64,000 nucleotides of DNA from Termitomyces sp. T153 (lineage: Eukaryota > Basidiomycota > Agaricomycetes > Agaricales > Lyophyllaceae): contig JACKQL020000145.1 of NCBI GenBank assembly GCA_018296165.2, positions 34,620 to 98,619 on the forward strand. The letters are read 5' to 3'. The first letter of the stretch is position 1. Each line of letters opens with the position of its first letter. The position numbers were made by a program, and so were the translations under genes. Positions 3,033 to 64,000 of this stretch are shown here, piece after piece. A model generated the notes under the pieces. The model was given only the letters and a program-made list of their open reading frames with translations, was not told where the DNA came from and made no database searches.

Positions 3033-3587
3033 TAGTGATGTACCAGACTCGGCTCAAAGCCTGAAGCTGGCCAGAAGCTGAACTCGAAAAAGCCGAGCCG
3101 CCACAAGCCATGGTTCAGGCTTTGGACGGCCTGTGGCTCAGGCTTGGGATTTTGAGACCCTGAAGCCTGGGCCTGAGTCGCGGCTTTCTGTGACTGAGTT
3201 GTACTGGTATACCAGCTTTACAAACAGTGAAATTTTTGTTAGAAAGCTTTATTTATACTTATAGTAATATAGTAGCACATCCAACAATTTTTTCCATGTG
3301 GTCAACACTGATATTCACCCATGATTGTTGTGAAAACTCATTATTCATACTTCAGTCCATGTTCAAAGTACATTTTAGTAGTGAAAGACTTATTCTATTC
3401 TCCCTCACATTGTCCCTGGCTGCTCAGTCTGGTAGTAAAGCTGCGGCCCAAGCCTGAGCTGGGTCAGACTTTGGCCAGGCTTGGGCTCACAGCTCAGGCT
3501 TGATATTATACAAGCCTGAGCCTGGAAAAGCCCTATGCTCATGCTCAGGCTTTTGAGCTGGGCCTGGCTGGGCCTAACACATTACTA
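3033..3587. mobile_element. hAT-like MITE (555 bp) with 8-bp TSD
   Basis: The two ends are imperfect inverted repeats: TAGTGATGT...GGCTCAAAGCCTGA at the left and, read on the other strand, TAGTAATGT...AGCTCAAAAGCCTGA at the right. Both ends are filled with CAGGCTT/AAGCCTG motifs in opposite orientation; the centre is AT-rich and non-coding. Left flank CTGCCCAC (3025-3032) is matched by CTGCCCAT (3937-3944) once the solo LTR inserted at the right end is removed, an 8-bp TSD with one C/T change. An 8-bp TSD and a TAGTGATG-like terminus are features of the hAT superfamily. It encodes nothing and would depend on a transposase elsewhere. Confidence 0.75.
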
Positions 3588-19089: not shown

Positions 19090-20130
19090 TAAATTGCAGA
19101 TCAGACACCAACATTTTCTCCACCCTGGTCACACTCCTCTGCACAATGGTTTTCTCTCTGGACACTCTCAAAACATCTCCCCTTCTCTGCCAGCTCTGTC
19201 CCAACCCTGGTCAACAGCAGTGCAACCAACAACTTCATTGATAAATCCCTGATGGCACTTGCTCCACAACCCCCCAGCTCCTCCCCACCCCCATCCTTCT
19301 AAAGCTCTTCAACAGTGATCCTACCTCTACTGAAGACATCACCCTTTGTGTGGAGATGTCCATTACTTTTGCCAATGGACTTGACAGGACCTCTGGCTGT
19401 TGGCCATGAAATTGCATGCTCCCACACTCCTTATTCTCATGACAACCAACCCCCACATTGACTGGCTCAGCCTCACCCTCCACCTTGACCAGGATAGCTT
19501 GCCCAATGCCAGACCTGTCCCTTTTGATATCTCACCCCACCCTAAGGGCCTGGAAGACACCACCAATGTCCCCTGGACCCCCCCCCAACAACTCCACTCA
19601 AAGTCTGCACAATCATTCATCATCAATGTTCTACTGGGCAACTCCTCTATGGTCCTCCCAGCCCTTGTTGACAGCAGAGCCTCCAGCATGTTCATCAGCA
19701 ACCAGTTTGAGACATCAACTCCAAGCATGCCTAACAGCCACCATCCCCCTCCACCTCCAGTTCCCTTTAGACTCTGACAACCCCAACTCCAACCCCAGCA
19801 ACTCCAGAGCCACCAGCATTCCCACCATAGGAAAACCAAGAAGAGAAATAAGATACACTCCCACCCCAGTCCTCCTTGAATACATTTCAAAGACTTCTCC
19901 CTAACATTCCCTAAAACTAGTACAAAGGTCTGAAATATCTGACCTGGCACCCTTAGGCAACTCCAGACCCCACTGCTGCAACTCCAACACCTAATTACAC
20001 TGACCTGGAAGCCCTCAACATTGAAATCATCAGCACTGTTCCCTTTGCATGCATCCTATAAGTCAGCACTCCTGCTTACCAGCTCCAGATCACCCTGGCA
20101 CTACTGGCAGAGCACCTATACACTAGTACC
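19090..20130 (+). pseudogene. Gypsy copy 1: retropepsin region
   Basis: Around 19200-19260 the sequence encodes LVNSSATNNFID.SLMALAP, the decayed form of the aspartic protease opening LV[DN]SGATDNFIDESLAALAP seen in the copy at 61.9 kb; the catalytic DSG reads NSS. A second segment near 19660-19720 (PALVDSRASSMFISNQFE) is similar, suggesting a duplicated protease-like block; a parallel pair occurs in the 61.9-62.4 kb copy. Many stops. Confidence 0.6.
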
Positions 20131-20148
20131 ACCCCACCAGAGTCAAAA

Positions 20149-23070
20149 ATGGAGGAACAGATTTTGCATGAAGTAGTTTCTATGAAGTATCATGAATTTG
20201 TTGACATATTCTCCAAAGGAACTGCAAAGGAGCTCCCTCCACACCAATCTTATGACCACAAAATTGATCTCAAAGAAGGCACCTCCCCTCCATTTGGCAA
20301 GATCTACAACATGTTGGAAGTCAAACTCCAGGCTCTCAAAGACTACCTCAATGACATGCTCAGTAAAGGTTTTATATGTCCATTGATCTCCACCACTGGA
20401 GCTCTAGTTCTGTTTTCCAAGCAGGACAGCTCTCTCTGCCTCTGCATTGACTACTGGGAACTTAACAAATTCACCAAAAAGAACTGGTATCCTCTTCCCC
20501 TGATTAGTGACTTTGTTGACTGCCTCTGCAGTGCAAAGATCTACACCAAGATAGACCTCTGCTCTGGCTACAACAATGTCTGGATTGCTCCAAGGCATGA
20601 ATGGAAGACTGCCTTCTGCACCTGCTACAGCCTCTTCAAATAGCTTGTAATGCCCTTCAGAATGACCAACTTCCCTGCCACCTTTCAGTACTTCATGAAT
20701 GACATCTTCCACAACATGAACAATGTTTTTGTTATCATATACTTGGACAACATTCTGATCTACTTGAATTCCCTAGAGGAACATCCAGAGCATGTCTGCT
20801 GTGTCCTAGAACAACTCCAGGAGTACCACCCCCATGCCAAACCCAAGAAGTGCTCCTTCCACACCATGGAGGTCAAATACCTTGGAGTTATTGTTACTCC
20901 AGATGGCATATGTATGGACCCAACCAAGGTCAAGGCCATTCTCAACTGGCCTCCATTGCAAAATGTCAAAGAGGTACAGTCTTTTCTGGGGTTTGCTAAC
21001 TTCTATTGCTGGTTCATTGACATCTACTCTGGGATCATGAAACCCCTCAATTGGATCACCTGGAAGAACACCTCCTGGGACTAGAATAGCAAATGCTAAA
21101 GTGTTTTCACCCTCCTCAAAAAGACCTTCACCTCTGCCATTTTGACCCCTCCCTGCTAATAGTACTCAAATGCAATACCTCTGACTATGCCATTGCTGCA
21201 ATACTCTCCCAGTTGGACTCCAGAGGGAAGGATCTCTGCCCCATTGCCTTTTACACCCATTTGATAATCCTCACAGAGCTCAACTATGACATCTATGACA
21301 AAGAACTCCTTGCTATCATCAAAGCCTTCTGGCAGTGGAGAGCCTACCTTGAAGGAGCCCTGCATCACATCCAAGTCTACTCCAACTGCAATGACCTATG
21401 ATACTTCACCACCACCAAGCAGCTCAGCTGCTGACAAGCTTGTTGGTCCAAAGCACTCTCTGAGTACAACTTCACCATCCACTATTGCCCTAGTTGACTT
21501 GGTACAAAACCCAATGCCCTCACCCAAAAGCCTGATGTGTATCCAAAGAAGTCATTTGAAGCTGAGTAGAATGCATTTAACCATTAAGTGGTAATCCCCC
21601 CCAAACACCTTTATGCCATGCTGATTATGAATGAAGAAAAGATCCTTCACCAAATTTGAGATGCACCTCTGGACCCTTTCTGCACCCAGCATGATCCCTG
21701 CAACAACTCTGCTGATGAGCCAGCAGCTGACCAACTCTTCACACTACCCCTGGACCATTTACTCTTACTCCAGGAAGGATGTATCTATGCTCTGGACCAC
21801 AAGCCCATTCACCTTGGCATAGTCTGGTGGCATCACAATTACAAACTCTAAGGACATCCAGGAATCCATAAGACCCTCCAACTCATTTCCCAGACTTACT
21901 TTTGGCCAAAAACGAAGCAGGATGTCATACAATACATATGGGTCTGCAAACCATACTTCCAGGCCAAGGTACTCCACCATCACATCTATGGCCTGCTGAA
22001 ACCCCTCCCCATTGGCTGCCACCCCTGGTCCTTGATATCAATGGACCACATTAGAAAGCTTCCTGACTCTGAAGGCTTTGATGCCATCTTTATTGTCATC
22101 TGCTGCCTCACCAATTAGCAAGCTATCTTCATCCCCTGCCACACTACCAACAACACTCTGGAGTTTGCCAGGCTATTCTTCCTCAAGCATGTATTCTCCA
22201 AGCATAGACTCCCAGACAACATCATCTCTAATCACAGCCCTTTCTTTGTCTCCCACTTCTAGCAATCATTGTGCAAGGCCCTCAAAATAAAGACTAACCT
22301 ATTAATTGCCTATCTATGGAAACCAATGGACAAACAGAATGAGTAAACCAGACCTAGAACAGTATCTCCACCTCTACATTAATTATTTACAGAACAACTG
22401 GTATGCAGAACTTCCCCTCACCAAGTTTACTTATAATAACACTCCTTACTCAACCACCAGAGTTTTCCCTTTTTATGCCAACAAGGGATACAACTCCCAG
22501 CTCATACTATTGCTTAAAGATATCCCCTATGATCCTCCACCAGTTCTTCTGGGACAAAATCAACACTGCCAATCAAGCCTATTCCAAGCATGCCAATACT
22601 CAATGTGACCCCACTCCCAACTGGTCTCCTAGAACTCTGGTTTGGCTTGATTGATGCATCTTCAAGACTCAGAGGCCCTCCGTCAAGCTTGACCATAAAT
22701 GACTTGGCCCCTTCAAGATCCTCTGAAAGGTCTTGACTCATGCCTACAAACTCAACCTATCTCTGGGCCTAAAGGGCCTCCACCTAGTTTTCCACATCTG
22801 CCTCCTTGAGAAATATACTCTGGACCCCTTTCCTGGACAACACCTCAGCCAACTACCACCTGTCAAAGTCAAAGATGAGTATCCCTACAAAGTTGACTAA
22901 ATCCTTGACTCCCACCTCATCTGCAGTTGACCCCACTACCTGATCTATTGGAAGGGCTACAGACCCAAGGACAACACTTGGGAACCCTGCAAAAATTGCT
23001 CTGGCACCCCTGCCAAACTCTGGGACTCCCATCAATGACACCTTACCAAGCTCTGAGACCTCCAGGATTA
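20149..23070 (+). pseudogene. Gypsy copy 1: RT, RNase H, integrase and chromodomain
   Basis: RT at 20149-21084: FVDIFSKGTAKELPPHQSYD, GKIYNMLEVKLQALKDYLND, CIDYWELNKFTKKNWYPLPL, YTKIDLCSGYNNV, then YLDNILIY, where the YxDD catalytic pair has lost its second Asp (D to N), and VKYLGVIVTPDGI. RNase H at ~21090-21420. Integrase from ~21640 to 22330, ending in a region with YINYLQNNWYAELPLTKFTY. A C-terminal chromodomain at ~22860-22990 (YLIYWKGYRPKDNTWEP) places the element in the chromovirus branch of Ty3/gypsy. Stops and frame changes throughout. The 3' non-coding border CTCCTGCCTCTGGATTTATT (23100) is shared with 27860 and 58580. Confidence 0.85.
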
Positions 23071-23274: not shown

Positions 23275-24150
23275 AAAAGGTGCAAGAGAAAAGGGAAACA
23301 AGGTCCAGACCCCCCCATCACTCTTCCTCCCCCTCTGAAACTACCCTTGCCACCCTCCCAATCAAATCCACCTCCATATGGGCTACCACTATGGCCAAAA
23401 CCTCTGGATGCCCAGGTAGGAGCTCCCCCACATCAGTTGCCACCTTCCACCATAAACTGGAGTCTGCTGCATTCCTCCACTGGTGCCCTATCAGCAGCTG
23501 CCCCATCTGTCTGAACCTCTGCTCTAGCTCTGGAGAAAGATTCCAGGCATCTGTGCCAGTCCATTTCTGCACTGATACATGAGTGGCCAACACCCTGTCC
23601 AGGAGAATCTGGTGCTCACAAACCCAGTCTGCCATGTGTTAGGAGAGCTGGAATAGGAGGAAACAAGGGACTCACACATAATCCCCCTCTGCCTCAAGGC
23701 TGCCTCATTGGCCAGCCACTCCTTGTGCTTTCTTGCAGCCTCCACCACTGCCTGGAGCACACCCACTTCTGGTACTAACTGCTGTACCCCCTGCTTTGCC
23801 CATGCCTCCAACTGCCCCAACTGCTCCTGCAGTCCCTGTGTAACAGCCTTCTAATTCCACTATGCCATATATCCATCCCTCCATGCCATATCCTGCTCCC
23901 TCTGCATTGTGTCACAATTTCCCCCCACTCTCTGGAGCTCCTCCTTGCAGGTTTCCAACATCCTTGTTAGTGCCTCTACCCACTAGTGCAAGAGGGCCTT
24001 GGAAATTGAGGAGGATGGCTTGAAACCTGGATCATGCCCACTCCCAGGATGGGCATTGATGAGTGTGCCTGTAGAGCTAGGGCTGACTGCAATAACAACC
24101 ATGGAGTTTGGGAGGAGCCTCTAGACAGGCCCACCACCACTGCTAATAAC
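23275..24150 (-). pseudogene. Antisense coiled-coil gene of the gypsy family, decayed copy 1
   Basis: Minus-strand exons match those of the intact gene at 58781-59912. The coiled-coil part reads QGLQEQLGQLEAWAKQG and AARKHKEWLANEAALRQRGI and ends at a GTGAGT donor (~23670); the intron contains CTCCTAACACA and ends CAG; the next exon opens WVCEHQILLDRVLA and continues LEQRFRQMGQLLIGH and WWKVATDVGELLPGHPEVLA. It lies between the pol end and the 3' LTR, as in the young element. Several stops from C-to-T changes. Confidence 0.75.
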
Positions 24151-32575: not shown

Positions 32576-33036
32576 GTCTAGCAACTCTAGAGCATTGTCT
32601 CTCAGAGTTAGTGCCCTCATTGTTTTGCTCAGCCAGTACCACCATAGAGTACTATTTTGTCAAGTCTACTTTTAGCACTAGCACCTACAGCTTATTTTGT
32701 TTTGTTATTGTCCCTGTCACTAACACCCCTTTTGCTGCTCCTAGCACCAGTATTTAGCCTTGTTCTGCTAGTAACTTATTTCCTAGTGATCTCAGTCCAA
32801 CTCTAGCTGGGTCTACTCATAGAGTTTTCCCTTCCTATTTGCTATTGCCATCTCTTGACCTTGTGCTAGCAACCTGGCACCTCTTCTGCATCTAGCAGGC
32901 TTTCTGGGACCTGGCTCAACTTGCAACCCTCATTTACTTAGTCTGTTCATACTCTACTTATGAAACTGCTAGTTGTTGTGTTCCCTACATGGCAGCTAGG
33001 TAGGTGGCAATGGATGTCATCAGCATCCACTTCCCA

Positions 33037-33780
33037 CTAAGACTCCAGGGCCACCATGTTCCACTGCCAGTGCCCCACTAACAGCCACCCCATCTGTCCC
33101 ACCCCCTGCCTTAGCTCTAGAGAGAGATCTGTGGGCATATGGCCCAACCCATCCTGAATCAATGCCAGTGCAGCTGAGGGCCTGTCCAGGAGGATTTGAT
33201 GCTCCCAGATCCAGTTTAGCAAGTTAGGTCAGTAAAATGAAAAGGTGAAGAGGAAGGGGACTCACACATTATGCTGCCCTGCCCTGAGGCTGCCTTATTG
33301 GCCAACCACTCCTTCCACTGCCTCCCAATTTCCACCTCTGCCCACCACACCCTGACCTCTGGTGCCCCCCACCATTCCTCTACTCCTCCCATGGACCTTG
33401 CCTCTAGCTGCCCCAACTGCTCCCATAGCCCTTGAATTTCCAAGACCTGCTTAGCAGCCATCAATATGGTGGTGTCCTAGTTATGCTATACCATGTGCCT
33501 GTCTCTCTGCACTATGTCCCAGTCTCTCTGCACTATGTCCCAATCCTCCTCCACCTTCTGGAGCTCCTCCTCCTGTGCTACTAGTTGCTCCGCCAACTCC
33601 TCCATTCTCTAGTGCAGGAACAAGTTGGTGGTTGACTGACCCATTAATGCTCACAACCTGGGAGAGTACATGTGGGAGCCAGGAGGGCTAGTCAGCAGTG
33701 CCCCTCCCCAAGGCCTCTTGCTAGGCCCAGCCTCTGGGGGCAGGATTCCCTCTGCTTTCCCTTGTCCTGCACAACCTATG
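33037..33780 (-). pseudogene. Antisense coiled-coil gene of the gypsy family, decayed copy 2
   Basis: Minus strand, from upstream: AGPSKRPWGG (matching AGPSKRPHGH in the intact gene), RMEELAEQLVAQEEELQKVE, LWEQLGQLEARS, QWKEWLANKAASGQGSIM, then a GTGAGT donor near 33265 and an intron with a CTAAC branch site; the acceptor reads CTAA, apparently AG-to-AA. The next exon opens ACTGGATCTGGGAGCATC (W-I-W-E-H-Q-I-L-L-D-R) and ends near 33040. It is followed at 34418 by a gypsy LTR, the same arrangement as in copy 1 and in the young element. Confidence 0.7.
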
Positions 33781-50434: not shown

Positions 50435-51580
50435 TGTCACGACCCGTTCCCCGAAAACCCCGCACATCGTCCATCAACCCCCCGAACCCCCAAAGGGACC
50501 CCCAACGCTCCGCCGAACTTCCACCCATGCCCCGCGCCTACTTCGGCTAACTCTGACGCCTCCCCAGCTAACTCCGACGGCCCCCTGGCCAACTTCGGTG
50601 CCTGCCCCGCAGCCACTGACACTTACCCTGGGCTTCCCGAACCCCGAGAACCACCCCCGCTGTTCCCGATCTTCGCCACCCATCATCAACTCAACACCCT
50701 GCTTCCTCTGACCTATTCTGGAGTATCACGACAACCTCGGGGCAACCCGCGTTCTCCAATGATCCCATCAACGTATCAGCGCGGCACAATCTTCGATCAC
50801 AACTGACACCCACCCACTCCGTCAAGCTCCGCCAAGCCCCGCTGCCACAGCCGACGTACCCCGAAGTCCTCCGATAGTCAGTATATAAGTCATCGAGTAG
50901 CTCTTCGTACTCTAGTCTTGAGATTGCTTAACGTTACCTATGGTCTGATTGTTTCCTTTTCGTGTTTCGTGTCTCATTCTCCTTACTCTCAGTCTCCCGG
51001 TCTTATCTCAGTCTCCCGGTCTTATCTCAGTCTCCCGGTCTTGTCTTGTCTCCATTTTGTTATCGTTCTCGTTATCGTCTCGTATCTCCACTCGAATCTA
51101 CTCTTGTTCCATATCGCCTCGTCCAATGCTGTCTCGGTGACTTCGTCCGACCGTTGTGCCCAAGCCTTCATCATCCCTAACGACCTCACAAACTCCGCGA
51201 TTACGATTACAAACCCCAACACTCCTTTACCAGGTCCGAACCTCACTCTTCGCTTGGTCCCGGACTCCATCAGCTCCAAATGATCTCCCATCAAACCCTG
51301 GCTCCGTCCCCATTGATCACACAGCCACCTACTCCCTTGCTTCCGCAAATCTCCTGTACAGCCTTCTGCCTGAACCCCGCCAAGACCATCTCGTTTCCCC
51401 ACAATCCGACTTCTCCGGACCTTCCCAGATCTGTCTGGATCACATCTCCCCAACTACCCGCGCAAGCCACCAGGGCCCGGAACATCTTCGAGTGTTCGGT
51501 TACCAATGCAGGGGAATCACGCCCGCCTAGTAAGGACTCGCCCAGTGCAGCTCAGCCCCCGGGGTCAGCGGAACCTGACA
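50435..51580 (+). mobile_element. Solo gypsy LTR (1146 bp), TSD GACAT
   Basis: TGTCACGACCCGTTCCCC at the left end, GGTCAGCGGAACCTGACA at the right end, flanked by GACAT at 50430-50434 and 51581-51585. TATATAAG near 50883 may be the promoter TATA box. A 19-bp motif TCTCCCGGTCTTATCTCAG is tandemly repeated three times near 50991-51045. CpGs are largely kept. It shares the family of the LTRs at 54788 and 60125 but has diverged from them. Confidence 0.9.
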
Positions 51581-51744
51581 GACATGGCATGAGCCAAAGT
51601 CAGACTACAAGAAAAAAGAGTGGCTCATAGATGTTTGAACCTTGATAAAAGTGCATTTGACATTGAAGATATGTGTACAAGATGGTGGTTGGTTGAATCA
51701 GTCTGGTCCATGTGTATCTCTGAAAACCCTGCTTTTTCATCAGG

Positions 51745-52169: not shown

Positions 52170-54050
52170 GAAATGGAAACAAGAACCAAACTCCCATCCA
52201 TTTGAGGACCCTCAGGACCCCTCCCACTCCTTCCATGTGCAGTGTGAGGAATCTGTTGGAATACAAAGCAAAGCCCCACCTCCCATTCCCCACCAGCAGG
52301 AAGAGCTTAATGTGGCATCCAACATCTTGAGAAGCCTCAACTCTGCAGGGGGGCTGTTTGACCAACCTGCCACCCACACCCTGGCCCTCTCCACTCATCC
52401 TTAGGCAAACTCTGTCCCCAGCACCTTCTGTACATAGGACCAACCTGCCATCCCCAAGCCCCACACCCAACAATTCCCTCTGCATGTTGACAATGACAAC
52501 CAAACCCTCTTCTACATTGATGAGCCTGGTAACTCTGCCAACAAGATTGCCCAATGCAACAGCCCTCTCTGAGACAGACCCCCTCACTTTGACCTCCATG
52601 CTCCTTGTGTCAATGCCCCTCCACCCTTCCAGAACATCCCAGCTCCCCTGAGGCAACCCACAGGCCCCAGGGCACCCCAACCCCTCTCTCTATCAACCCT
52701 CCTTGTCCCCCACCCATTCTAATGCTCAACCCCCTGCCAACACTAATTACTTTGGACCCCCACCCCTAGAGGACCCTCTCCCTCCCAATGGACCCCCTCT
52801 CCCTCCCAATGGACCCCAGGGCCTCCCCCAGGCAATACTGGTCAGCCCCCTGGCAGTGGACCTCCTAATAGCAGACCTCCTGGAGGATGGGGTAGCAGAC
52901 CTCCTGGAGGATGGGGCCCAGCCATGGACAACTTCCCTCCTCAGCATGGAAATGGGAACAATTACTACTACTACTACTACTACTACTACTACAATGCCAG
53001 ACCCCTGCCCCAAACCACTCAGGATAATACTCACAATGCACTGGCTTGGGAAGGAAAGCTTGACATTCAAAAGCCCAAACCATGTACTGGTTGCAACCCC
53101 TAGAAATGGAGAACCTTTAAAACATAGTGTCTAACCATGTTCCAAGCTAAGCCTATTATCTTCCAGCTTGAGAGCTTATGAGTAGCCTTTGCCATGTCCT
53201 ATTTGCAGAGTATCACCTTCAACCACTACATGGCACTACTCTAGTTTGACCCCAACAATCCCATGCTCTCCAATTGGCTTGCCTTCACCCAGGAGTTCTC
53301 CAGTAAGTTTGGTGTCTTTGATACTGTAGCAGAAGTGGAGGAGAATCTCTTCAACCTCTAAATGTGTGACAATAAACACTTCACAACCTTCATCATACAA
53401 TTTGAATGGGAGGCCTACAAAACAGGATGGAATTACAATGCCCTCCAATTTGCACCCTGCTTCAATGAATCAAGGACATCCTCTGCCTCACACCCAAGCA
53501 AACTACATATGATGGCTACAAGGCACTCATTACCCAGGTTGACCAATGTTACTGGGAAGACCAGAGCAAGAACACAGCACTGCAGACTACATGGAACACC
53601 TCCAGCAATACTAACTGGCAGTCCAGAGCAACCAATGGCAATTGACCCTCAATACCCACCAATCCTGCCAACCCTGCACCCCATTCTCCTCCAAGCTGAG
53701 GGCCTCCCAGCACCAATTGATCTCCAGGACTATGCCCCCCTGCCCAACTCAATGCTGCTGACCTCCAGGAGGCCCTGAAACCCCTGGACACCAATAATCT
53801 TAATGATGCTCTGGACTCCACCAACAACCAGGAAGCTCTATGCATGAACAAGATTCAGAATAGGCCCTGGATCGATGTATTGGAGGAAACTCAGGAGAAA
53901 TGATGGAAAGAGGGTGCATGCATCCTATGTGGTGAACAGCGACATTTTATCAGTAGTTGCCCTAAACATCAGGTGATGGGACATGCCATATGGACTATTG
54001 ACAGGGAAGACTGTGACTACTAGTTTATGGAAAACAAGTCAGCAGTTTAG
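52170..54050 (+). pseudogene. Gypsy copy 5: Gag region with poly-Tyr tract and zinc knuckle
   Basis: Blocks parallel to copy 1: HSFHVQCEESVGIQS, ASNILRSLNSAGGLFDQP, a Gly/Pro linker with repeated RPPGGWG, a (TAC)n run coding ten Tyr at ~52962-52993 (five in copy 1), the Gag core (LAFTQEFSSKFGVFDTVAEV, YKTGWNYNALQFAP) and a zinc knuckle near 53930 (LCGEQRHFISSCPKHQ, first Cys at ~53917). The 5' end is truncated at the repeat arm ~52165. Gag continues, after the nested insertions, at 61714. Confidence 0.75.
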
Positions 54051-54787
54051 GTCTCTGTCAGGTTCTGCTGACCACAGGGGCTCAGCTACACTGGGCGAGT
54101 CCTTACTAGGCAGACATGATTCCCTGCACTGACAACTGGGCATTTGGAGGTGTCCCAAACACTGGGGACTTGTGAGGATAGTTGGTGGAGATTGATCTGA
54201 GCAAGTCTGGGGAGGTCCGGAGGAGTAGGGGACAAGCTGCAAGGAAGGGGGATGGGCTTGGTGGGGTTCAGGCACAAGTCTGTATGTGAGTATTGCGGGT
54301 GTGGAGGAGGTGGAGGCTACGCGAGTGATGGAAGTGGAGCCAGAGTTTGATGGGGGATCAATGGAGGTTGATAGAGTTCAGAGCCAAGCATGTAGCAAGG
54401 TCTGGAGTTGGTTAAAGAGTGTCTGGGATTCATAATTGTAATTGTGGGGTTTGCAAGGCATTAAGGTTGGGAAAGATAGGAACACAATGGATGGGATGGA
54501 TCAAATGAGACAAGACAGAGTCAAACAAAATGAGACAGAGTCAAGACAAGATGGAGATGAGAACGAGAATAAATTCAGGCAGAGATACAAAACAATAATA
54601 AAAATGATAATGGAATAGAGACAAGACAAGACTGGAAGACTGAGAGTAAGAAAATGAGACTAAGAACATGAAACATGAGAGAGAAACAATCAGACCATAG
54701 GTAACATTAAGCAATATCAAGACTAGAGTATGAAGAGCTACTCTATGTCTTATATACTGACTACTGGAGAGCTCTGGGGAATGTTGG

Positions 54788-55974
54788 TGTCACGACCCGT
54801 CCCCTGAACCCCCGCACATCGTCCATCAACCCCCGAACCCCCAAAAAACCCCCGATGCTCCGCCAAACTTCTGCCCATGCCCCGCGCCTATTTCGGCTAA
54901 CTCCGACACCTCCCCGGCTAACTCTGACGGCCCCCTGGCCAACTTTGATGCCTTCCCCGCAGCCACTGACACTTACCCTGGATCTCCCAAACCCCAAGAA
55001 CCACCCCCGCTGTTCCCAATCTTCACCACCCATCATCAACTCAACACCCTGGTTCCTCCAACCTATTCCGGAGTACCACAACAACCTCGGGGCAACCTGC
55101 ATTCCCCAATGATCCCATCAATGTATCAGCATGGCCCAATCCTCAATCGCAACCGACACCCACCCACTCCGTCAAGCTCCGCCAAGCCCCGCCATTGCAG
55201 CCGACATACCCCGAAGTTCTCCGGTAGTCAGTATATAAGTTGCTGAGTAGCTCTTCATACTCTAGTCTTGATATTGCTTAACATTACCTATGGTCTGATT
55301 GTTTCCTTTTCGTGTTTTGTGTTTCATGTTTCGTGTCTCGTTCTCCTTACTCTCAGTCTCCCGGTCTTATCTCAGTCTCCCGGTCTTATCTCAGTCTCCC
55401 GGTCTTATCTCAGTCTCCCGGTCTTGTCCCATCTCCATTTCGTTATTGTTCTCGTTATCGTTTCATATCTCCACTCGAATCTACTCTTGTTCCATATCAA
55501 CCCCATCCCATTTTGTCTGACGCTGTCTTGGTGACTCCATCTGGCCATTGTGCCCAAGTCCTCATCAACCTAAACAACCTCACAAACTCCACGATTACAA
55601 TCATGAACCCCGACACTCTTTCACCAGGTCTGAACCTCGCTCTTCGCTCGGTCCCGGACTCCATCAACTCCAATTGATCTTCCATCAAACCCCGGCTCTG
55701 CTCCCATTGATCACACAGCCGCCCACTCCCTCGCTTCCACAAATCTCCCATACAGTCTTCTGCCTGAACCCCACCAAGACCGTCCCATTTCCCTGCAATC
55801 TGACTTCTCCGGACCTCCCCGGATCTGTCTGGGTCACATCCCACTAACTATCCACACAAGTCATGAGTGCCCGGAACGTTTTTGAGTGTTTGGTTACCAG
55901 TGCAAGGGGATCATGCCCGCCTAGTAAGGACTCGCCCAGTGCAGCTGAGCCCCTGAGGTCAGCGGAACCTGACA
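54788..55974 (+). repeat. 5' LTR of the young element (1187 bp)
   Basis: TGTCACGACCCGTCCCCTGA to AGCGGAACCTGACA. TATATAAG at ~55235 may be the promoter. Four tandem copies of TCTCCCGGTCTTATCTCAG lie at ~55352-55427. The C/T-rich tracts give long spurious open frames. Confidence 0.9.
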
Positions 55975-55999
55975 TAATATCAAGACTCTACCTTACCCC

Positions 56000-58600
56000 A
56001 TCTGTGATGCCCGCATTATCTCCACACACACAATCAAATAACTCCGATGTCTATGGTCTACCCGTGCCTGGAAACCCTTATGATTCATACGGCCCTGCCC
56101 AATTTGCCGAGGCACATTGAGTCGCGGATCTGACACCAAACGTCCCCTCCGCTCCGGTTACATCCATACAACGGCTCCCCCCACGGACACCCTCCCCAAC
56201 TCACACCCAACCTCCAACCCCTCACGCAAACCGTCAAATCATCTCCTACCCCACTCTTACCCTCTCTGCCAACTCCGCTCTCTCGCACAAAGTTGACCCT
56301 GACACCACCCAAAGAACAGCATTCCAAAACCCAGCAACCACCCGACCAAAGGAGCGACAATGTCTCTGGCACTGCAACAACCCCCAACAAACAATAACGC
56401 CAACCCACTACGAGACAGTCACCTATCATGCAAAGGATCGCCAGCCACGATGAGACCACTGAGAATGCGCTTCCCCAAAGCCCGCCTGTGGATCCACCAA
56501 ACCACTAGCAACCCCGAAGACCAATGCGACTAATCACCAACAACAGAGCAAGAACCCCAGACCTAGGATATGCTCCAACCCCAGAACCTGCTTCCAGACC
56601 ACGGTCAACTCGGCCGTCACCTCTGCCCAACAAATAAAGGGGCCCCGACACCTCCGGCCCGACCCCGACAACCCTGGTACAAGACCAAGACATCCCCGAG
56701 CTTCTAGACAGTCAGAAAAAGAATGGCTACGCACCCTCTACTCCGCCGCCTAAAGCACAGCTCCAAGGTTAACAAGGAGAACCATGGCACCCCACTCCCG
56801 ATGAGGGACAACTCCAGACCACGCCGCTATTTCACCACCCTCCCCCACACAATCCAGAACCCCCGACAATGAGGACCCTGGACACCAAATCTCCCTGTAG
56901 GCCACCCCCGAACCTAAAACTCCACCCCCAGACTCCGCCACCTCCCACAAAGGAATCTCCAGCATAGGAGCCACCCTGAACTAACTATAGGAAAAAGGAC
57001 CCTATATGAAGTAGTTCCCTAAGTACTCTAAATTCGCTGACATGTTCATATAAGGGAGGGAGAAGCCCCACCATCATCCAGAAAACGACGATTGGCCGTT
57101 TAAGCGACCTGACAACCCAAAGGGCATACGCTCCGATATCCTTAAAGGACCTCCCCCACCTGGTTCGACGACCCAAACAACCCCGCGCCAGCCCAAAACT
57201 GCCCAACCCACCCCTCCGACCCCCTCCGAACCCCTCGACACAGCTCTGGATCCTGGCAACACGACTCCAGGGCCTCTGCTCTGACTACAACATCTCATCA
57301 AGAGGACTTATGGCGCCAACCCAACAACAATGCCCTGGTAGCCCCAACTCTCCAACATAAATCACCACCCGCTCCGAATCCCGCCCCTATGCCGGAATAT
57401 GCCCGTCAAACAGGGACCACACCATCGGAGCACCCAGAAGCAAGCCACATACAAGTATCCTCTTTGGAGTACCCAGAAGCAGGCCACATGTGAAGTAGTC
57501 TCTTGGAGTACCCCAAAGGTTGCTGATGCCTCCCCCAAGAAGTGAGCGGTGCCTCTCCCCACTGCCACCCCGCATTTGCAACAATCTCTGGGCCGCTCCA
57601 GAACACAAATGAAGAGTTGCCTCAACCCTGCCGCGACTCCCGGGGAGCCCCACTCCAGTGCCTCCCCGTGGCTGACCTCCCCACCACCCCCCAACAACCA
57701 TGAACAACCCACAAACCCCCACCGAGTGACCCTTGTGTCAACTCTGGGACCACCCACTTCATCCCCGATGAAGGAACCATCGACCCCAGGTAGGAACAAC
57801 CCTCGGGATGAGCCCCAAAGCATCTCCGCTGAGGCAGACCATTCCCCAACCAACCCCCACGCTGCCCAAAAGAAACATCCACCAACACAACTCCAACAGA
57901 CCTCCAAACTCGGGGGAGTATCAGAAATACATAAGACCCCTCTGTCCGTCTCGGGACTTACCTTTGGTCAGGAAAGCAAAGTCATGTAGATGATCCGGAA
58001 CCTCAAATTATGGCCCCGGACCCCAAAGGAACTGGTCGGGACTGATCACTCCGCATCCTGCCCCCTCAGTCATCAACACTCCAGAGCACACCAAAGCACC
58101 ACTCAAACATGCCCGCCCACAGACGCAATACTCCGGAACACGACCCCGACCCAGACCAACTATGCCACGAGGACGAACCTCACCCCACTGACCCCCACCA
58201 GTGAAGAAGGCCCTGCCACCTTTGCCACCAGCGCCGGCACAAGGGCCAAATCACGGGAAGACCTCCGTTCCCCCCCCGCCAACCGCACTGCCAAGAAAAC
58301 CAAAGCCCCAAATCCACTGGGCACCATGAAAGATTTGAAGGTCCACCCTCCAATACCAATACGGCGCACGTCCCTGCCACAGACAAAAGAAAACCCCTAC
58401 ACCCCTGGTCGGAATTTCCGAGAATTGAACTCAATAACACTGCCTGAAATGCCATGGAACTCCACCAGAGAACTCCCACCACCCCTGCCGAACCTCGGGA
58501 GCCCTCCCTGCGATGCCCCGCCCCGTCCCGACAAACCCTGGGACTAGCCAGCCCAGACGGCGCTAGCGGGTGTAACCCCCGCCTCTGGATTTGCTAGGGA
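56000..58600 (+). pseudogene. Interior of young element, degenerate gag-pol derivative
   Basis: Starts CTCTACCTTACCCCATCTGT, homologous to 16347. No intact frame over 190 codons resembles Gag or Pol. A 44-bp segment (AGTACCCAGAAGCA.GCCACAT) is tandemly duplicated at 57425-57515. The 3' border TAACCCCCGCCTCTGGATTT (58573) is shared with copies 1 and 2, marking the former end of pol. Confidence 0.55.
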
Positions 58601-58780
58601 TTCAACTCCCTCTCACACCCCTGCGTGTTTCGCTTACTTCGCCTTCATACAAACTAAAACCTCACTTCACACACCCAGGGACCAAGAAAAAGACCTATTT
58701 GCATACAAAAAGTTATATACACAACAAGGCAAGGGAGGCAGCAAGTCCGGGGGCAACAAGAAATGAGGCCCGCACCCATC

Positions 58781-59912
58781 TCACTCCCTCCCCGGACCCC
58801 CTGGCAACCCTACCCCCAGGTCGACTTCCATCTGGGCCCGCACCACCGCTAAGACCTCTGCCAACCCCAGCAATGCCTCCCCCGCGTCAGCCGCCACCTC
58901 CCACCATGACCCTGGGGCCACCGCATTGCGTCGCCGATGCCCCGCCAACAACCTCTCCAATCACGCCATCTCTTGCTGCAACTCCAGAGGCTGAACTGCA
59001 GACCCCTGCGTCAACCCGTCCTGAATTGACGCGAACACCGTGGAGGCACCGTCCAAGAGGACCCGATGCTCCTGCACCCAGCCTAAACCCAGAAAATGAG
59101 CTGTTAGTAACAAACAGAGGAATGGGAGACAACTCACAAAGGATTCCCGTGCACCCCGAAGCGGCCTCGTTGGCCAACCAATCCTCCCTCCGCCTCGCCG
59201 CCTCCAGTTCCACCCACAACGCATCCCCCTCCGGAACTCGTCCCTGCCCCTCCGCTTCTCCCGCGGGCTGCCCCTCCATCTGCGTCAGACGCTCCCGCAA
59301 GCCCCGCACCTCTAACGCTTGCTCCATTGCCACGCGCACCGAAGTGTTCCTCTCCCGCTCCATCGCTTCCTTCTCCATCCGCACTATGTCAAGGTCCTCC
59401 CTTGCCCGTTGGAGCTCACCCTCCCACACTGCCAATGACGTCGTCAAAGCCTCCACCTGCTTGCGAAGAAAGACCTCCGTGATCGAAGGAATCGGCGTGG
59501 GGGGGACTTGACGACTGTTCCGAGGGAACACCTGGGGTAGGAGAGACAAGGAAAGACTCCGGAGGCCCCACTGATGACTCGTGCCCATGCGGCCTCTTGC
59601 TGGGTCCTGCCCCCGAGGGCGGGGAGGCTCGACGCTTCCCCTGAATCACCGCTGAGAACGCCCCCTTTCCCTTCGGCAATGCGGGACAAAACTTGGTCCG
59701 TTTCAGAACCCCTGGGAAATCCACCACCACCACCACAGACAACTCTACAAAAGCCCCATCAATCACCCCAAAAAGACAAGTCAACACCACTTACGACTCC
59801 AGTCCCTGACGCTAGCGTGGTGCCAACGCTCAAACTCCTCCCCCCCACTGTTGTACACTACCACCTCATCCAAATCGGTGGGAGAGACTACTGGATTGCT
59901 AGGGGAAGACAT
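58781..59912 (-). CDS. Antisense three-exon coiled-coil gene inside the gypsy element (330 codons, two lesions)
   Basis: Exons 59912-59795, 59711-59138 and 59082-58781; introns of 83 and 55 nt. The 55-nt intron has a GTGAGT donor, TTACTAAC branch site and TTTAG acceptor. Exon 1 encodes MSSPSNPVVSPTDLDEVVVY and EEFERWHHASVRDWSR; exon 2 a basic linker (KRTKFCPALPKGKGAFSAVI, AGPSKRPHGH), then a long coiled coil (FLRKQVEALTTSLAVWEGEL through ALEVRGLRERLTQMEG) and RREDWLANEAASG; exon 3 WVQEHRVLLDGASTVFASIQ, then WWEVAADAGEALLGLAEVLA. Lesions: one extra C in a C7 run near 59510 and a TGA at 58961-58963 that looks like a CGA-to-TGA change. The ATG lies ~210 bp from the 3' LTR, so antisense transcription from that LTR is plausible (inference). 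I do not recognise the family; it is conserved in the copies at 23.3-24.1 and 33.0-33.8 kb. Confidence 0.75.
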
Positions 59913-60124
59913 GACAAAATTTGGGAAATTCTGGGGTACGTCCAAAGCTTTTAATTGATTGAGGAGAACCCTGACAAAGCGGCAGCTGTGCTTTGACTTC
60001 GTCTCCCATGCCGCTATCACTCGCTGCGGATTGATCAATATTGCTTGGCTTCGACTCCCATGCCCTGCCGATCCCCATCCTGCCCCCCACATCTCAAAGG
60101 GTCTTGACACTGAAGGGGGGGTGA

Positions 60125-61293
60125 TGTTACGACCCGTCCCCTGAACCCCCGCACATCGTCCATCAACCCCCCCAACCCCCAAAAAACCCCCGATGCTCCA
60201 CCAAACTTCTGCCCATGCCCCGCGCCTATTTCGGCTAACTCCGACGCCTCCCCGGCTAACTCCGACGGCCCCCTGGCCAACTTTGATGCCTTCCCCGCAG
60301 CCACTGACACTTACCCTGGATCTCCCAAACCCCAAGAACCACCCCCGCTGTTCCCAATCTTCACCACCCATCATCAACTCAACACTCTGGTTCCTCCAAC
60401 CTATTCCGCAGTACCACAACAACCTCGGGGCAACCTGCATTCCCCAATGATCCCATCAATGTATCAGCATGGCCCAATCCTCAATCGCAACCGACACCCA
60501 CCCACTCCGTCAAGCTCCGCCAAGCCCCGCCATTGCAGCCGACATACCCCGAAGTTCTCCGGTAGTCAGTATATAAGTTGCTGAGTAGCTCTTCATACTC
60601 TAGTCTTGATATTGCTTAACATTACCTATGGTCTGATTGTTTCCTTTTCGTGTTTCGTGTTTCATGTTTCGTGTCTCGTTCTCCTTACTCTCAGTCTCCC
60701 GGTCTTATCTCAGTCTCCTGGTCTTATCTCAGTCTCCCGGTCTTGTCCCATCTCCATTTCGTTATTGTTCTCGTTATCGTTTCATATCTCCACTCGAATC
60801 TACTCTTGTTCCATATCAACCCCATCCCATTTTGTCTGACGCTGTCTTGGTGACTCCATCTGGCCATTGTGCCCAAGTCCTCATCAACCTAAACAACCTC
60901 ACAAACTCCACGATTACAATCATGAACCCCGACACTCTTTCACCAGGTCTGAACCTCGCTCTTCGCTTGGTCCCGGACTCCATCAACTCCAATTGATCTT
61001 CCATCAAACCCCGGCCCTGCTCCCATTGATCACACAGCCGCCCACTCCCTCGCTTCCACAAATCTCCCATACAGTCTTCTGCCTGAACCCCACCAAGACC
61101 ATCCCATTTCCCTGCAATCTGACTTCTCCGGACCTCCCCGGATCTGTCTGGGTCACATCCCACTAACTATCCACACAAGTCATGAGTGCCCGGAACGTTT
61201 TTGAGTGTTTGGTTACCAGTGCAAGGGGATCATGCCCACCTAGTAAGGACTCGCCCAGTGCAGCTGAGCCCCCGAGGTCAGCAGAACCTGACA
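60125..61293 (+). repeat. 3' LTR of the young element (1169 bp)
   Basis: TGTTACGACCCGTCCCCTGA to AGCAGAACCTGACA. Three copies of the 19-bp repeat at ~60690-60745, one fewer than in the 5' LTR, otherwise nearly identical to it. Confidence 0.9.
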
Positions 61294-61713
61294 GTTGGCT
61301 GTGGTGGTGGGGCTTGGCGGAGCTCGACAGAGTTGATGGGTGTTGGTTACAATTAGAGAGTGGGCCACAATAATATGTTGATAGGATCAATTAGTGACAC
61401 AGGCTGTTCCGAGGTCGTCATGATACTCCAAAGTAAGTTGGAGGAACCAGGGTGTTGAGTTGATGACATGTAACAGGGTCAGGCATGGCAGGGGAATGGT
61501 CCCAGGGGCTCAGGAGATCTAGGGGAAGCATCATGGACTGCGGGGAAGATGTTGGAGTTGGCCAGGGGGCCATTAGAGTTAGCCAAGGATGTGTCAGAGT
61601 TAGCCGGAGTAGGCACAGAGCACTGTGGAAGTTTGATGAGGTGTCGGAGGAGGTTCTGGGGGGGCAGGGGGTCATTGGGCGATGTGTGGGGGTCCAGGGA
61701 ATGGGTTGTGACA

Positions 61714-63416
61714 GTCTCAAAGATGCACTAGACTGTGGACCAGACCTTGATATCTTCTCTGCCCTGGCCACACTCCTCCATGCAACAGTACTTGCTCCGG
61801 ACAACCTCCCAGCACACCTCCCTTCCCACTCCTCCACCACCCTTCTTTGCACCACCCTATCCTTCTCCAATGACTCCATCCCCACACTGGTCAACAGTGG
61901 CACCACAGATAACTTCATTGATGAATCCCTGGCAGCGCTTGCTCCTCAATGCCTCTTATGTCTCCCCACTCCAATCCTCCTCAAACTCTTCAATGGCAAC
62001 CCCACCTCTGCCAGTGATATCACACACTGCATGGAAATGACTGTGACCTTCACCAATGGACAATGACAAGAACTCCAATTACTCATCACAAAACTACACC
62101 CCTCTGTCCCTGTCATTCTAGGCTTCTTATGGCTCCACCCACTAATTCCCGCATTGACTGGCCCACTCTCACTCTTCACCTTGACTGGGACAACCCAACT
62201 GACTCTGGACTGGTACCCTTTGATGTCTCACCCCCCTCCAAGAACTCCAAGAGTATGAACAACCAACTCTGAACCCCCCCACAGCTCCACTCAAAGTCTG
62301 CACAGTTGTTTGTCATCAATATCCAACTTGATGGCTCACCTACAGTCCTCCCTGCCCTTGTCAACAGTGGCACCTCCAGCACATTTGTCAGCAGCTAGCT
62401 TGACCTCCAACACAACAATCTTGATGAACCCCTTGAGCTCCAACTCTTCAATGAAAGCCCTGCCATGACAGGAATTACTCAATACCATGACAACACCCTC
62501 ACCCTTGACAATGACTTAAGGTTCCAGGCCTGGCTCCTCATTACCCAGCTCCCCCCATCAACTCTGATCATGCTTGGACTTCTGTGGCTGCAGGACATCA
62601 ACCCTGACATTCACTAGAAGAACCTCACCATGTGATTCCCTGGCTCCAAAGCAAGTCTAGTAGCCACTTTCCCCCTCTGCCTCTTGTCCATCTCAGATTC
62701 TGATGTCCCCAATCCTGACACTGACACCCCTGGAGCAACCCAAAGTCCTTCAACTCTTGATGGCAATCAGAAAAGTGAAGACAAAGTGCCCCCACCTCAG
62801 TCACCCTCAAGCAAAGTGTGATGGCTGCCCTCCAACATACCTCAGAATTGATACAAAGGTCTGTGGTACCCTGACCAACAGCACCCAACCTCTCCAAACA
62901 ACTCTGCCACCACTCTGGACCCAGCCACAACTACCCTGTTACCCACCCCTGTCAATCCTGGAAACCTCAACATCAAAATTATTGGCACCATTCCCTTCAC
63001 ATGCATTTTACAAGATGCCACCCCTGCCTTCCAGCTGCAGATCATGCCAGCCCTACCAGAAGAATACCTCTGCACAGAAGCTACCTTGCTGGAGTGCACA
63101 ACCAAGGAACAGATCCTATACAAAGTAGTTCCCCTGGAGTATCATGAAATTGCTGACATATTCTCTGAAGGGAGTGCAAAAGAACTTCATCTGCATCATT
63201 CCTATGACCACAAGATTGATCTCAAAGAAGGCACCTCCCCCCTGTTTGGCAAAATCTACAACATATCCAAGATCAAACTCTGGACCCTAAAAGATTACCT
63301 CAACAACATGCTTGGCAAAGGCTTCATACACCTGTTGATCTCTGCTGCTGGCACTCCAGTCCTATTTGCCAAGAAAAAGGATGGATCACACAGACTTGCA
63401 TTGATTACTGGGGACT
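61714..63416 (+). pseudogene. Gypsy copy 5: protease and RT start
   Basis: Continues copy 5 after the nest: DALDCGPDLDIFSALATLLH, then the retropepsin VNSGTTDNFIDESLAALAPQ (~61890-61950) with the catalytic D of DSG as N, a second protease-like block PALVNSGTSSTFVSS (~62350), a linker, and RT from ~63110 (YKVVPLEYHEIADIFSEGSA, DHKIDLKEGTSPLFGKIYN, GTPVLFAKKKDGSHRLA). Interrupted at 63417 by a solo LTR. Stops present, CG-poor. Confidence 0.8.
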
Positions 63417-63878
63417 TGTAAGGGAATCAAGTGCAACCAAGGATAAACCCAGCAATGACAAGTAACACAGGTGGCAAGCAAGAGTTGAAGGGCAATACAA
63501 GCAGCTAAGAGTCCAGCAAGCAGGTGAGCACAGCAAGCAAGGCTAAGGTAACAATGCTGGGGCTCTTACAGTCAATCTAGTGGATAGGCCAGGAAGACAC
63601 TGCTATTGTTTGGTCTGAGGATAAGTTTATATACTACATCTGTGGCTATGCTATGACTAATGCTATATGTGGTAAGTGGCCTGGGTATGCTAAACAGTAA
63701 TTACTGACTATATGTCAAAAGGGGAAATAAGGTCTGATGACTACAAAGGGCTGACTACTACTGATTGGAGGGTGCAGGGGCTTGGCAGCCAGTTGATTGA
63801 ATATGCTAAAGATGATGCTATACCTATGACTAGGGCCAGATTGAGTTGGAGTTACCTAATAAGGATTGTCCCCTTACA
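63417..63878. mobile_element. Solo LTR (462 bp) of another family, TSD GGACT
   Basis: Begins TGTAAGGGAATC and ends GTCCCCTTACA, 8-bp inverted ends TGTAAGGG/CCCTTACA, flanked by GGACT at 63412-63416 and 63879-63883. It splits RT of gypsy copy 5 exactly between the codons preceding and following L-I-T-G/GLNKVTKKN. Contains TATATAC near 63628. No coding content. Confidence 0.85.
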
Positions 63879-63981
63879 GGACTCAACAAAGTCACCAAAA
63901 AGAACTGGTATCCTCTCACCCTGATTGGAGACCTTGTTGACTGCCTCCTCAGTGCCAAGGTCTACACAAAAATAGACCTCC
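63879..63981 (+). pseudogene. Gypsy copy 5: RT continuation
   Basis: Resumes RT with GLNKVTKKNWYPLTLIGDLV and SAKVYTKIDL, where the family sequence would go on to R-S-G-Y-N-N-V. It stops at 63981. Confidence 0.85.
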
Positions 63982-64000
63982 TGTAAGGGTGACCTCTGGA
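63982..64000. mobile_element. Start of a second TGTAAGGG-type insertion, cut by window end
   Basis: After ATAGACCTCC the RT sequence changes to TGTAAGGGTGACCTCTGGA. The first 8 bp equal the start of the solo LTR at 63417, so another LTR of that type, or a relative, probably begins here. Confidence 0.45.

What the first reader, a model, noticed from the sequence alone, without database searches (positions are those of the whole stretch)
58781..59912. Spliced antisense gene carried by a gypsy chromovirus family, between pol and the 3' LTR
The sequence shows a minus-strand, three-exon frame of 330 codons (one C-run indel, one CGA-to-TGA) in the youngest element. The same order of blocks (basic linker with AGPSKRP, coiled coil, WLANEAAS, intron, W-x-x-EH-x-x-LLD, WW-V-AD-GE-LL) is recognisable in two old copies at 23.3-24.1 and 33.0-33.8 kb. 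All three keep the intron position, the GTGAGT donor and a CTAAC branch site. A conserved intron and frame opposite to gag-pol mean the protein was under selection while the family was active. Antisense accessory genes are known in a few LTR elements, but I know no description matching this one. Possible roles (inference): host-factor binding, regulation of gag-pol by antisense transcription, or a packaging/targeting protein.
Basis: partly seen in the sequence, partly recalled or inferred. Interest (0 to 1): 0.88.

Follow-up and report, generated by a model that had tools for sequence, protein, structure and literature searches.

The report
Backward spliced gene in fungal retrotransposons
Jumping elements in a termite-farmed mushroom carry a real, spliced protein gene on the strand opposite to their usual genes, and one very numerous element family has kept little else, which suggests that this backward protein helps or controls the element.

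Summary
Minus strand 59912-58781 is a three-exon gene, broken in this copy. In the same genome (72.4 Mb; closest proteins are from Termitomyces) 26 of 57 distinct copies examined are intact: 341 codons, GT-AG introns of about 50 and 55 nt. Intact copies show dN/dS 0.21. The constraint follows the spliced minus-strand frame, shifting phase at each intron, and is not a CpG effect.

The host element is not as described. This 6.5-kb element has LTRs, a self-priming site and a PPT, but no detectable gag-pol. It belongs to a numerous non-autonomous family whose only gene we could find is the antisense one. Autonomous chromodomain gypsy elements in the same genome carry a homologous antisense gene between pol and the 3' LTR (57 of 62 neighbouring RT/exon pairs have this layout). 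Theirs can have four exons and 514 codons, with eight conserved cysteines (zinc-cluster-like) before a similar basic linker and coiled coil.

Antisense accessory ORFs at this place are known in plants and in Boty of Botrytis. This is a new variant: basidiomycete, multiply spliced, cysteine-rich and retained in a pol-less family. Most likely function (inferred): a nuclear dimeric regulator of the element's own DNA.

The parts
59795..59912 (-). exon 1 of the antisense gene (start codon at 59912-59910)
   Evidence: ATG kept in 57 of 57 and GT donor in 52 of 57 distinct copies
59745..59794 (-). intron 1, 50 nt, GTAAGT...TAG
   Evidence: length 49-50 in 57 of 57 copies, acceptor TAG 57 of 57; phase of constraint shifts here
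59138..59744 (-). exon 2: basic AGPSKRP linker, coiled coil, WLANEAAS; carries the frameshift in this copy
   Evidence: helix 127-196 of the 341-aa protein P0004, block pLDDT 68-90
59083..59137 (-). intron 2, 55 nt, GTGAGT...CTAAC...TAG
   Evidence: GTGAGT in 54 of 57 copies; length 55 in 56 of 57
58781..59082 (-). exon 3: W-x-x-EH-x-x-LLD ... WW-V-AD-GE-LL; one in-frame stop in this copy
   Evidence: 139 of the 150 best-scoring copies have no stop in the matched exon 3; chosen by score
54788..55974 (+). 5' LTR (TG...CA), with TATATAAG starting 32 nt before the site complementary to the PBS; 5-nt target-site duplication GTTGG at 54783-54787 and 61294-61298
   Evidence: 97.0% identical to the 3' LTR
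60125..61293 (+). 3' LTR
55976..55987 (+). self-priming primer-binding site: 12 nt complementary to LTR 55264-55275
   Evidence: 12 nt also in L062-L064, 11 nt in L061 and L065; 300 random 32-mers reached at most 10
60112..60121 (+). polypurine tract GAAGGGGGGG before the 3' LTR
   Evidence: sequence
60020..60079 (-). conserved block between 3' LTR and antisense ATG (palindrome TTGATCAATATTGATCAA in the autonomous L077, imperfect here); candidate antisense promoter/operator, or a cis element near the PPT
55988..58516 (.). rest of the internal region: no gag, protease, RT, RNase H, integrase or chromodomain detected
   Evidence: nine selected ORFs of sister copies L062/L063: no Pfam family; window and five copies: only short scattered tblastx pieces
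58517..58619 (+). stretch homologous to the pol 3' end (end of chromodomain and behind it) of the autonomous element: probable remnant
   Evidence: window and L063 vs L076 about 3038-3199
33019..33764 (-). old degenerate copy of the antisense gene
23363..24018 (-). old degenerate copy of the antisense gene, 3.3 kb downstream of an RT on the other strand (the autonomous geometry)
20062..21081 (+). RT of the older gypsy element that holds the 23.4-24.0 kb copy
   Evidence: RVT_1 4.8e-4 (below its cut-off) and 6.5e-16 on two consecutive ORFs

Best explanation
It is a protein-coding gene of a chromodomain Ty3/gypsy lineage of Termitomyces, placed tail to tail with gag-pol between pol and the 3' LTR, on the opposite strand, with a frame that requires splicing (shown from sequence). 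In an autonomous-type copy it encodes a 514-aa protein: disordered N-terminus, a cysteine-rich module with eight conserved Cys (probably zinc-binding), a basic NLS-like linker, a long coiled coil and a conserved helical C-terminus. In the window's numerous family no gag-pol is left and the protein is 341 aa without the cysteine module, yet it has been under purifying selection (shown). Inferred mechanism: an antisense promoter between the 3' LTR and the start codon drives a short spliced mRNA. The product enters the nucleus, dimerises through the coiled coil and acts on the element's own DNA or chromatin, setting transcription or silencing of the family. It would work like HBZ/APH of HTLV or the nuclear aORF-3R proteins of plant gypsy elements. 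Because a pol-less family also keeps the protein intact, a role that favours the copy making it (activation or anti-silencing, or cis-preferential packaging or targeting) fits better than pure repression in trans.
For: Gene real: 26 of 57 distinct copies fully intact (2 of 30 DNA-chosen, 24 of 27 protein-chosen). dN/dS 0.209 for intact copies; the two other gene-strand frames give 1.23 and 1.57 in exon 2. Codon-position divergence 0.0129/0.0058/0.0477 at non-CpG sites. The fast position shifts phase at both introns as splicing demands. Annotations of other Termitomyces strains give the same lengths: P0004 341 aa, P0127 514 aa. Autonomous link: L076 has a chromodomain (5.7e-17) followed by antisense exons; of 62 RT/exon pairs under 6 kb, 57 are opposite-strand and downstream and 49 lie at 2.96-3.29 kb, with about 3.7 pairs expected by chance. 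Intact 514-aa gene with three 50-51-nt introns in L077. Each of the eight cysteines is kept in all or all but one of the 32-39 non-gap rows of 44. Coiled-coil helix 272-368, block pLDDT up to 96.
Against: No expression data: antisense transcription, splicing and protein are not observed. DNA binding and nuclear entry are inferred; Pfam Zn_clus scores 14.4 bits, below its cut-off of 21, and neither PDB profile searches nor fold searches gave a relative. The 341-aa version lacks the cysteine module, so DNA binding by it cannot be the whole function. The region upstream of the ATG is conserved mainly on the LTR/PPT side (L063 vs L077: 99 of the 120 LTR-side columns, 63 of the 120 ATG-side ones), so it may serve the PPT/LTR rather than an antisense promoter. 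88 of 150 listed RT hits have no such antisense exon hit within 6 kb (both lists capped at 150), so how general the association is among gypsy elements is open. Intact copies were largely picked by protein score, which lowers dN; the less biased degenerate set still gives 0.37.
Confidence: 0.5

Rival explanations
1. The antisense protein is a structural or packaging/targeting helper (particle adaptor, genome-packaging or integration-targeting factor) rather than a transcription/chromatin regulator; the pol-less family keeps it to be packaged or mobilised efficiently by the autonomous partner.
For: The 341-aa form lacks the cysteine module but keeps coiled coil and C-terminal helices; the pol-less family retains PBS, PPT and LTRs and is numerous, so it must be mobilised in trans.
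Against: Coding on the antisense strand separates it from the gag-pol transcript, unusual for a particle component; basic NLS-like linker; comparable antisense proteins in print are nuclear (Grande gene23 in PMC7264820; HBZ in PMC10186651, passages).
Confidence: 0.25
2. Anti-silencing factor: the protein counteracts host silencing (methylation, RNAi) on its own family. This is a narrower form of the best explanation, so the odds overlap.
For: Would select for the protein even in pol-less copies; 7 of 57 copies lost a splice donor by GT to AT, a CpG-type change consistent with methylated, silenced copies.
Against: No domain hint; the comparison with plant TE anti-silencing proteins is recalled, not tested.
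Confidence: 0.2
3. The antisense transcript itself, not the protein, is what matters (dsRNA regulation); the frame is incidental.
For: Antisense RNA roles are discussed for such elements (PMC7264820, part 2).
Against: Codon-position constraint in the spliced frame, phase shift at introns, conserved cysteines and splice sites.
Confidence: 0.03
4. The coding strand is the plus strand: a long continuous plus ORF (357-359 aa) opposite the gene is the real frame.
For: That ORF is open in L062 and L063, and one plus frame in exon 2 has dN/dS 0.269.
Against: A continuous frame needs the same fast phase throughout; it is phase 2, 1, 2 in exons 1, 2, 3. In exon 2 the plus frame has one stop among intact copies, the minus frame none. 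Other Termitomyces annotations carry the minus protein.
Confidence: 0.02
5. A host gene captured by retrotransposons, amplified as a passenger (an origin, compatible with a later function).
For: Introns in a retroelement fit a gene held in reverse orientation, where the sense RNA does not splice them out (inference).
Against: Present in diverged autonomous and non-autonomous lineages at the same place and under selection. A separate host gene was not searched for.
Confidence: 0.1

Closest known systems
Antisense additional ORFs between pol and 3' LTR (aORF-3R) of plant Ty3/gypsy: Grande gene23, RIRE2, Retand (TRP28), PvRetro13
   Same: Opposite strand, between pol and 3' LTR, conserved across copies; some products nuclear or predicted DNA-binding (PMC7264820 parts 1-2 of 3; PMC11963269 passages only). 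Some recently active Retand elements lack coding domains.
   Different: Fungal chromodomain lineage; three or four exons with about 50-nt introns; cysteine-rich plus coiled-coil protein with no TRP28 or other Pfam domain above cut-off; one family has no detectable gag-pol yet keeps the gene under selection.
Boty of Botrytis cinerea (antisense ORF)
   Same: A fungal LTR element listed as carrying an antisense ORF at this place (PMC7264820).
   Different: Ascomycete element; its protein was not compared here, so homology is untested.
HTLV-1 HBZ and APH-2/3/4
   Same: Antisense, spliced, nuclear regulator (HBZ with a bZIP); APH-2/3/4 lack the bZIP yet act on LTR transcription or on Tax/CREB, a parallel to the 341-aa form without the cysteine module (PMC10186651 passages).
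   Different: Retroviruses of primates, bZIP, no homology; promoter in the 3' LTR, whereas here it is unknown.
Non-autonomous LTR elements (LARD, TR-GAG; recalled, no call)
   Same: LTRs, PBS, PPT, no full gag-pol.
   Different: Those are non-coding or keep gag (recalled); here the retained gene is the antisense one.
Fungal Zn(2)-Cys(6) binuclear cluster proteins (PF00172)
   Same: Six of eight conserved Cys spaced C-x2-C-x6-C-x15-C-x2-C-x6-C, basic linker, coiled coil.
   Different: Score below cut-off; middle spacing 15 is outside the usual 5-12 and the basic residue of the first half is missing (PROSITE rule recalled); two extra conserved Cys.

Membership tests
aORF-3R (antisense accessory ORF of Ty3/gypsy) | ORF antisense to gag-pol | tested here: met
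   57 of 62 RT/exon pairs under 6 kb opposite strand and downstream of RT
aORF-3R (antisense accessory ORF of Ty3/gypsy) | lies between pol and the 3' LTR | tested here: met
   L076: chromodomain then antisense exons; L077: antisense gene then PPT/LTR boundary. In the window copy only the 3' LTR side can be shown, since no pol was found
aORF-3R (antisense accessory ORF of Ty3/gypsy) | present and conserved in most copies of the family | tested here: inconclusive
   62 of 150 listed RT hits have a listed antisense exon within 6 kb; 56 of the 135 scored cysteine-exon copies have no stop (counted by hand); all lists are capped and chosen by score
aORF-3R (antisense accessory ORF of Ty3/gypsy) | own antisense promoter / nuclear product (known for Grande) | not testable with these tools
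   needs RNA and cell biology; only a conserved upstream block
Chromovirus (chromodomain Ty3/gypsy) | RT and chromodomain in the same element, for relatives carrying the gene | tested here: met
   L076: Chromo 5.7e-17 about 2.3 kb behind the RT of the 1394-aa frame on C21; one element checked
Chromovirus (chromodomain Ty3/gypsy) | gag-pol in the window's element 54788-61293 | tested here: not met
   no Pfam family in nine selected internal ORFs of sister copies L062/L063; only a short remnant of the pol 3' end; 0 of 150 in autonomous geometry
Non-autonomous LTR retrotransposon | paired LTRs, PBS, PPT, no gag-pol | tested here: met
Zn(2)-Cys(6) binuclear cluster (PF00172) | profile score above the curated cut-off and C-x2-C-x6-C-x(5-12)-C-x2-C-x(6-8)-C spacing (spacing rule recalled) | tested here: not met
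   14.4 bits against 21; middle spacing 15. So 'zinc-cluster-like' only
HBZ-type bZIP | bZIP domain | tested here: not met
   no bZIP among Pfam hits; only the way of working is compared

The most novel reading that the evidence does not exclude
A high-copy LTR family has discarded gag and pol but keeps, under purifying selection, a single spliced antisense gene. Its only product would then be a helper or regulator that acts on, or prefers, the copies that make it: a retrotransposon that lives by an antisense protein alone, with enzymes borrowed from autonomous relatives that carry a zinc-cluster-like version of the same protein.
Probability: 0.4. Interest if true: 0.85.

Novelty: new variant of a known kind. 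Interest (0 to 1): 0.7.

Why it matters
Antisense ORFs of LTR retrotransposons are described mainly in plants, and the two papers seen here on them call their function unknown. Here is a fungal system with many near-identical copies, intact autonomous-type and pol-less versions side by side, and clear protein-level selection. A pol-less element that keeps the antisense protein tests what the protein is for: it cannot be serving the element's own gag-pol. It would also explain many 'hypothetical proteins' in Termitomyces annotations (192 hits) as retrotransposon genes.

Full report
What is there. The window is G000:C145:34620-98619 of a 72.4-Mb, 307-contig genome. The closest proteins are hypothetical proteins of Termitomyces sp. 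T112, J132, Mn162 and 'cryptogamus', so the host is taken to be a Termitomyces or near relative (inference). An LTR element lies at 54788-61293: LTRs of 1187 and 1169 nt, TG...CA, 97.0% identical, flanked by the 5-nt duplication GTTGG. It appears to sit inside an older LTR in reverse orientation, which sits in an older gypsy element (self-matches). Internal nucleotides 2-13 are complementary to the LTR 32 nt behind the start of a TATATAAG box, as in self-priming Tf1/sushi-type elements (that comparison is recalled). 11-12 of these nt pair likewise in five other copies; 300 random 32-mers reached at most 10. A polypurine tract precedes the 3' LTR.

The gene. On the minus strand, 59912-58781, three blocks form a gene. 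It is broken here by a frameshift and a stop, but 26 of 57 distinct copies from the same genome have ATG, both GT-AG pairs and an open frame of 341 codons (339 in two) (60 loci fetched, L031 dropped as a second fetch of the window copy, two identical pairs merged). The sampling matters: only 2 of 30 copies chosen by DNA similarity to the window's decayed copy (itself included) are intact, and 24 of 27 chosen by protein score. In one search, 139 of the 150 best exon-3 matches have no stop. Intron lengths are 49-50 and 55-56 nt in the 57 copies. Protein P0004 of strain J132 is also 341 aa.

Selection. Among the 26 intact copies dN is 0.0157 and dS 0.0749 (ratio 0.209). The two other gene-strand frames give 1.23 and 1.57 over exon 2, and two plus-strand frames give 1.4. 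One plus-strand frame, which shares wobble positions, gives 0.269, so the frame had to be decided another way. The fast position is phase 2, 1, 2 in unspliced coordinates in exons 1, 2, 3, which is what the spliced minus frame predicts and a continuous plus ORF forbids. Excluding CpG sites sharpens the contrast (0.0129, 0.0058, 0.0477), and five representatives more than 2% apart give 0.0234, 0.0200, 0.0899 at non-CpG sites. The 31 copies that are not intact give 0.371, as expected for selection followed by decay. Caveats: pairs are not independent, and protein-chosen copies lower dN.

No gag-pol in this family. No Pfam family is found in nine selected ORFs of the internal regions of sister copies L062 and L063. 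tblastx against RT loci and older elements gave only scattered short pieces, plus one consistent segment at the pol 3' end of L076. Of the 150 best exon-3 hits, 2 have a listed RT within 6 kb and none in the autonomous geometry (3.7 pairs expected by chance). The five copies read whole are 6.1-6.3 kb with LTR identities of 95.2-99.1%. So the family looks non-autonomous, and the antisense gene is the only conserved gene detected in it. The RT list holds only the 150 best of 2207 candidates, so a rare or diverged pol-bearing member could be missed.

Autonomous relatives. An element on C21 with a 1394-aa RT frame has a chromodomain at the pol 3' end (Pfam 5.7e-17), followed tail to tail by exons homologous to the antisense gene (37% identity over exon 2, 56% in exon 3). 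With its last exon as query, the 150 best hits were compared with the 150 best RT hits: 62 pairs lie within 6 kb, of which 57 are opposite-strand and downstream, and 49 lie at 2.96-3.02 or 3.26-3.29 kb (the same geometry measured from two ends); about 3.7 pairs were expected by chance. The remaining 88 RT hits have no listed exon nearby; both lists are capped. The window's own old copy at 23.4 kb lies 3.3 kb behind its RT. Locus L077 holds a naturally intact gene: four exons (124, 239, 871, 311 nt), introns of 51, 50 and 51 nt, 514 codons. The annotated J132 protein P0127 is also 514 aa.

The protein. Both forms share a basic linker (GPSKR-like), a long coiled coil (helix 272-368 of P0127, block pLDDT up to 96; helix 127-196 of P0004), WLANEAAS and a helical C-terminus with WW. 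The 514-aa form adds a module with eight cysteines, each kept in all or all but one of the 32-39 non-gap rows of 44 aligned. Its six central cysteines resemble Zn(2)-Cys(6), but Pfam scores 14.4 against a cut-off of 21 and the spacing is atypical. The models are otherwise low-confidence (mean pLDDT 57.8 and 50.5), and structure searches were uninformative. Zinc binding, DNA binding and nuclear entry are inferences.

The leader. Between the 3' LTR and the antisense ATG, sequence is conserved across the two families: 45 of 60 columns are identical in the window, L062, L063 and L077 in the block around the palindrome. L063 and L077 agree at 50, 49, 37 and 26 of 60 columns going from LTR to ATG. 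In the autonomous L077 it holds TTGATCAATATTGATCAA, and the exact 25-mer pattern occurs 62 times in the genome (reversed control 0). 54 of 62 lie 532-613 nt before a listed cysteine exon on the same strand (the constant distance partly reflects common descent). It is a candidate promoter or operator for the antisense gene. Since conservation is highest on the LTR side, a role in reverse transcription near the PPT is as possible; neither was tested.

What it does. A nuclear dimeric regulator of the element's own DNA is the best-supported reading: basic linker, coiled coil and cysteine module, with known antisense proteins in this position being nuclear (Grande gene23; PMC7264820) or LTR regulators (HBZ, APH-2/3/4; PMC10186651, passages). 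The APH-2, -3 and -4 proteins lack the bZIP and still act, as the 341-aa form lacks the cysteine module. Since a pol-less family keeps the protein, selection should see a benefit tied to the copies that carry it. That argues for activation, anti-silencing or cis-preferential help rather than plain repression (inference). The gene, strand, splicing-dependent frame, selection and position are shown; expression, localisation, binding and direction of effect are not.

Place among known things. Antisense ORFs between pol and the 3' LTR are an established kind in plants and in Boty of Botrytis (PMC7264820); Retand's TRP28 proteins are predicted to bind DNA (PMC11963269, passages). The survey 'LTR Retrotransposons in Fungi' has no occurrence of 'antisense' in its main text (PMC3248453). 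In eight listings, most of them capped, I saw no description of this protein. It is filed as a new variant: basidiomycete chromodomain lineage, multiply spliced, cysteine-rich plus coiled-coil, and retained under selection by a pol-less high-copy family.

Noticed in passing
window 52652-64000: Nested insertions: an older gypsy element (gag-like part about 52.9-54.05 kb, continued at about 61.7-64 kb) is interrupted by an old reversed LTR (54054-54787 and 61294-61713), which is itself interrupted by the element studied here.
   Followed up: partly
window 50435-51581: A further LTR, about 85% identical to those of the element studied, without a partner element seen in the examined stretch.
   Followed up: no
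L077 690-720; window 60020-60079: Palindrome TTGATCAATATTGATCAA plus CCGCAGCGAG between 3' LTR and antisense start, conserved across families; exact 25-mer pattern 62 times in the genome.
   Followed up: partly
young-family contig starts, e.g. C39:3635, C284:3611, C251:3610, C98:3600: Several contigs begin about 3.6 kb before the antisense gene's end, which in the window element would be inside the 5' LTR: the assembly probably breaks at this high-copy element.
   Followed up: no
L005, L007, L020, L022, L023, L030, L054: 7 of 57 copies lose splice donors by GT to AT, a CpG-type transition; suggests methylation-driven decay of silenced copies.
   Followed up: partly
L062 1262-1579 and 1571-1888: A 318-nt tandem duplication at the 5' LTR/internal boundary (99.7% identical) in one copy with 99.1% identical LTRs.
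   Followed up: no
proteins P0098, P0074, P0164: A further subfamily (509 aa in P0098) with the cysteine module but young-type linker and coiled coil, intermediate between the 514-aa and 341-aa forms.
   Followed up: partly
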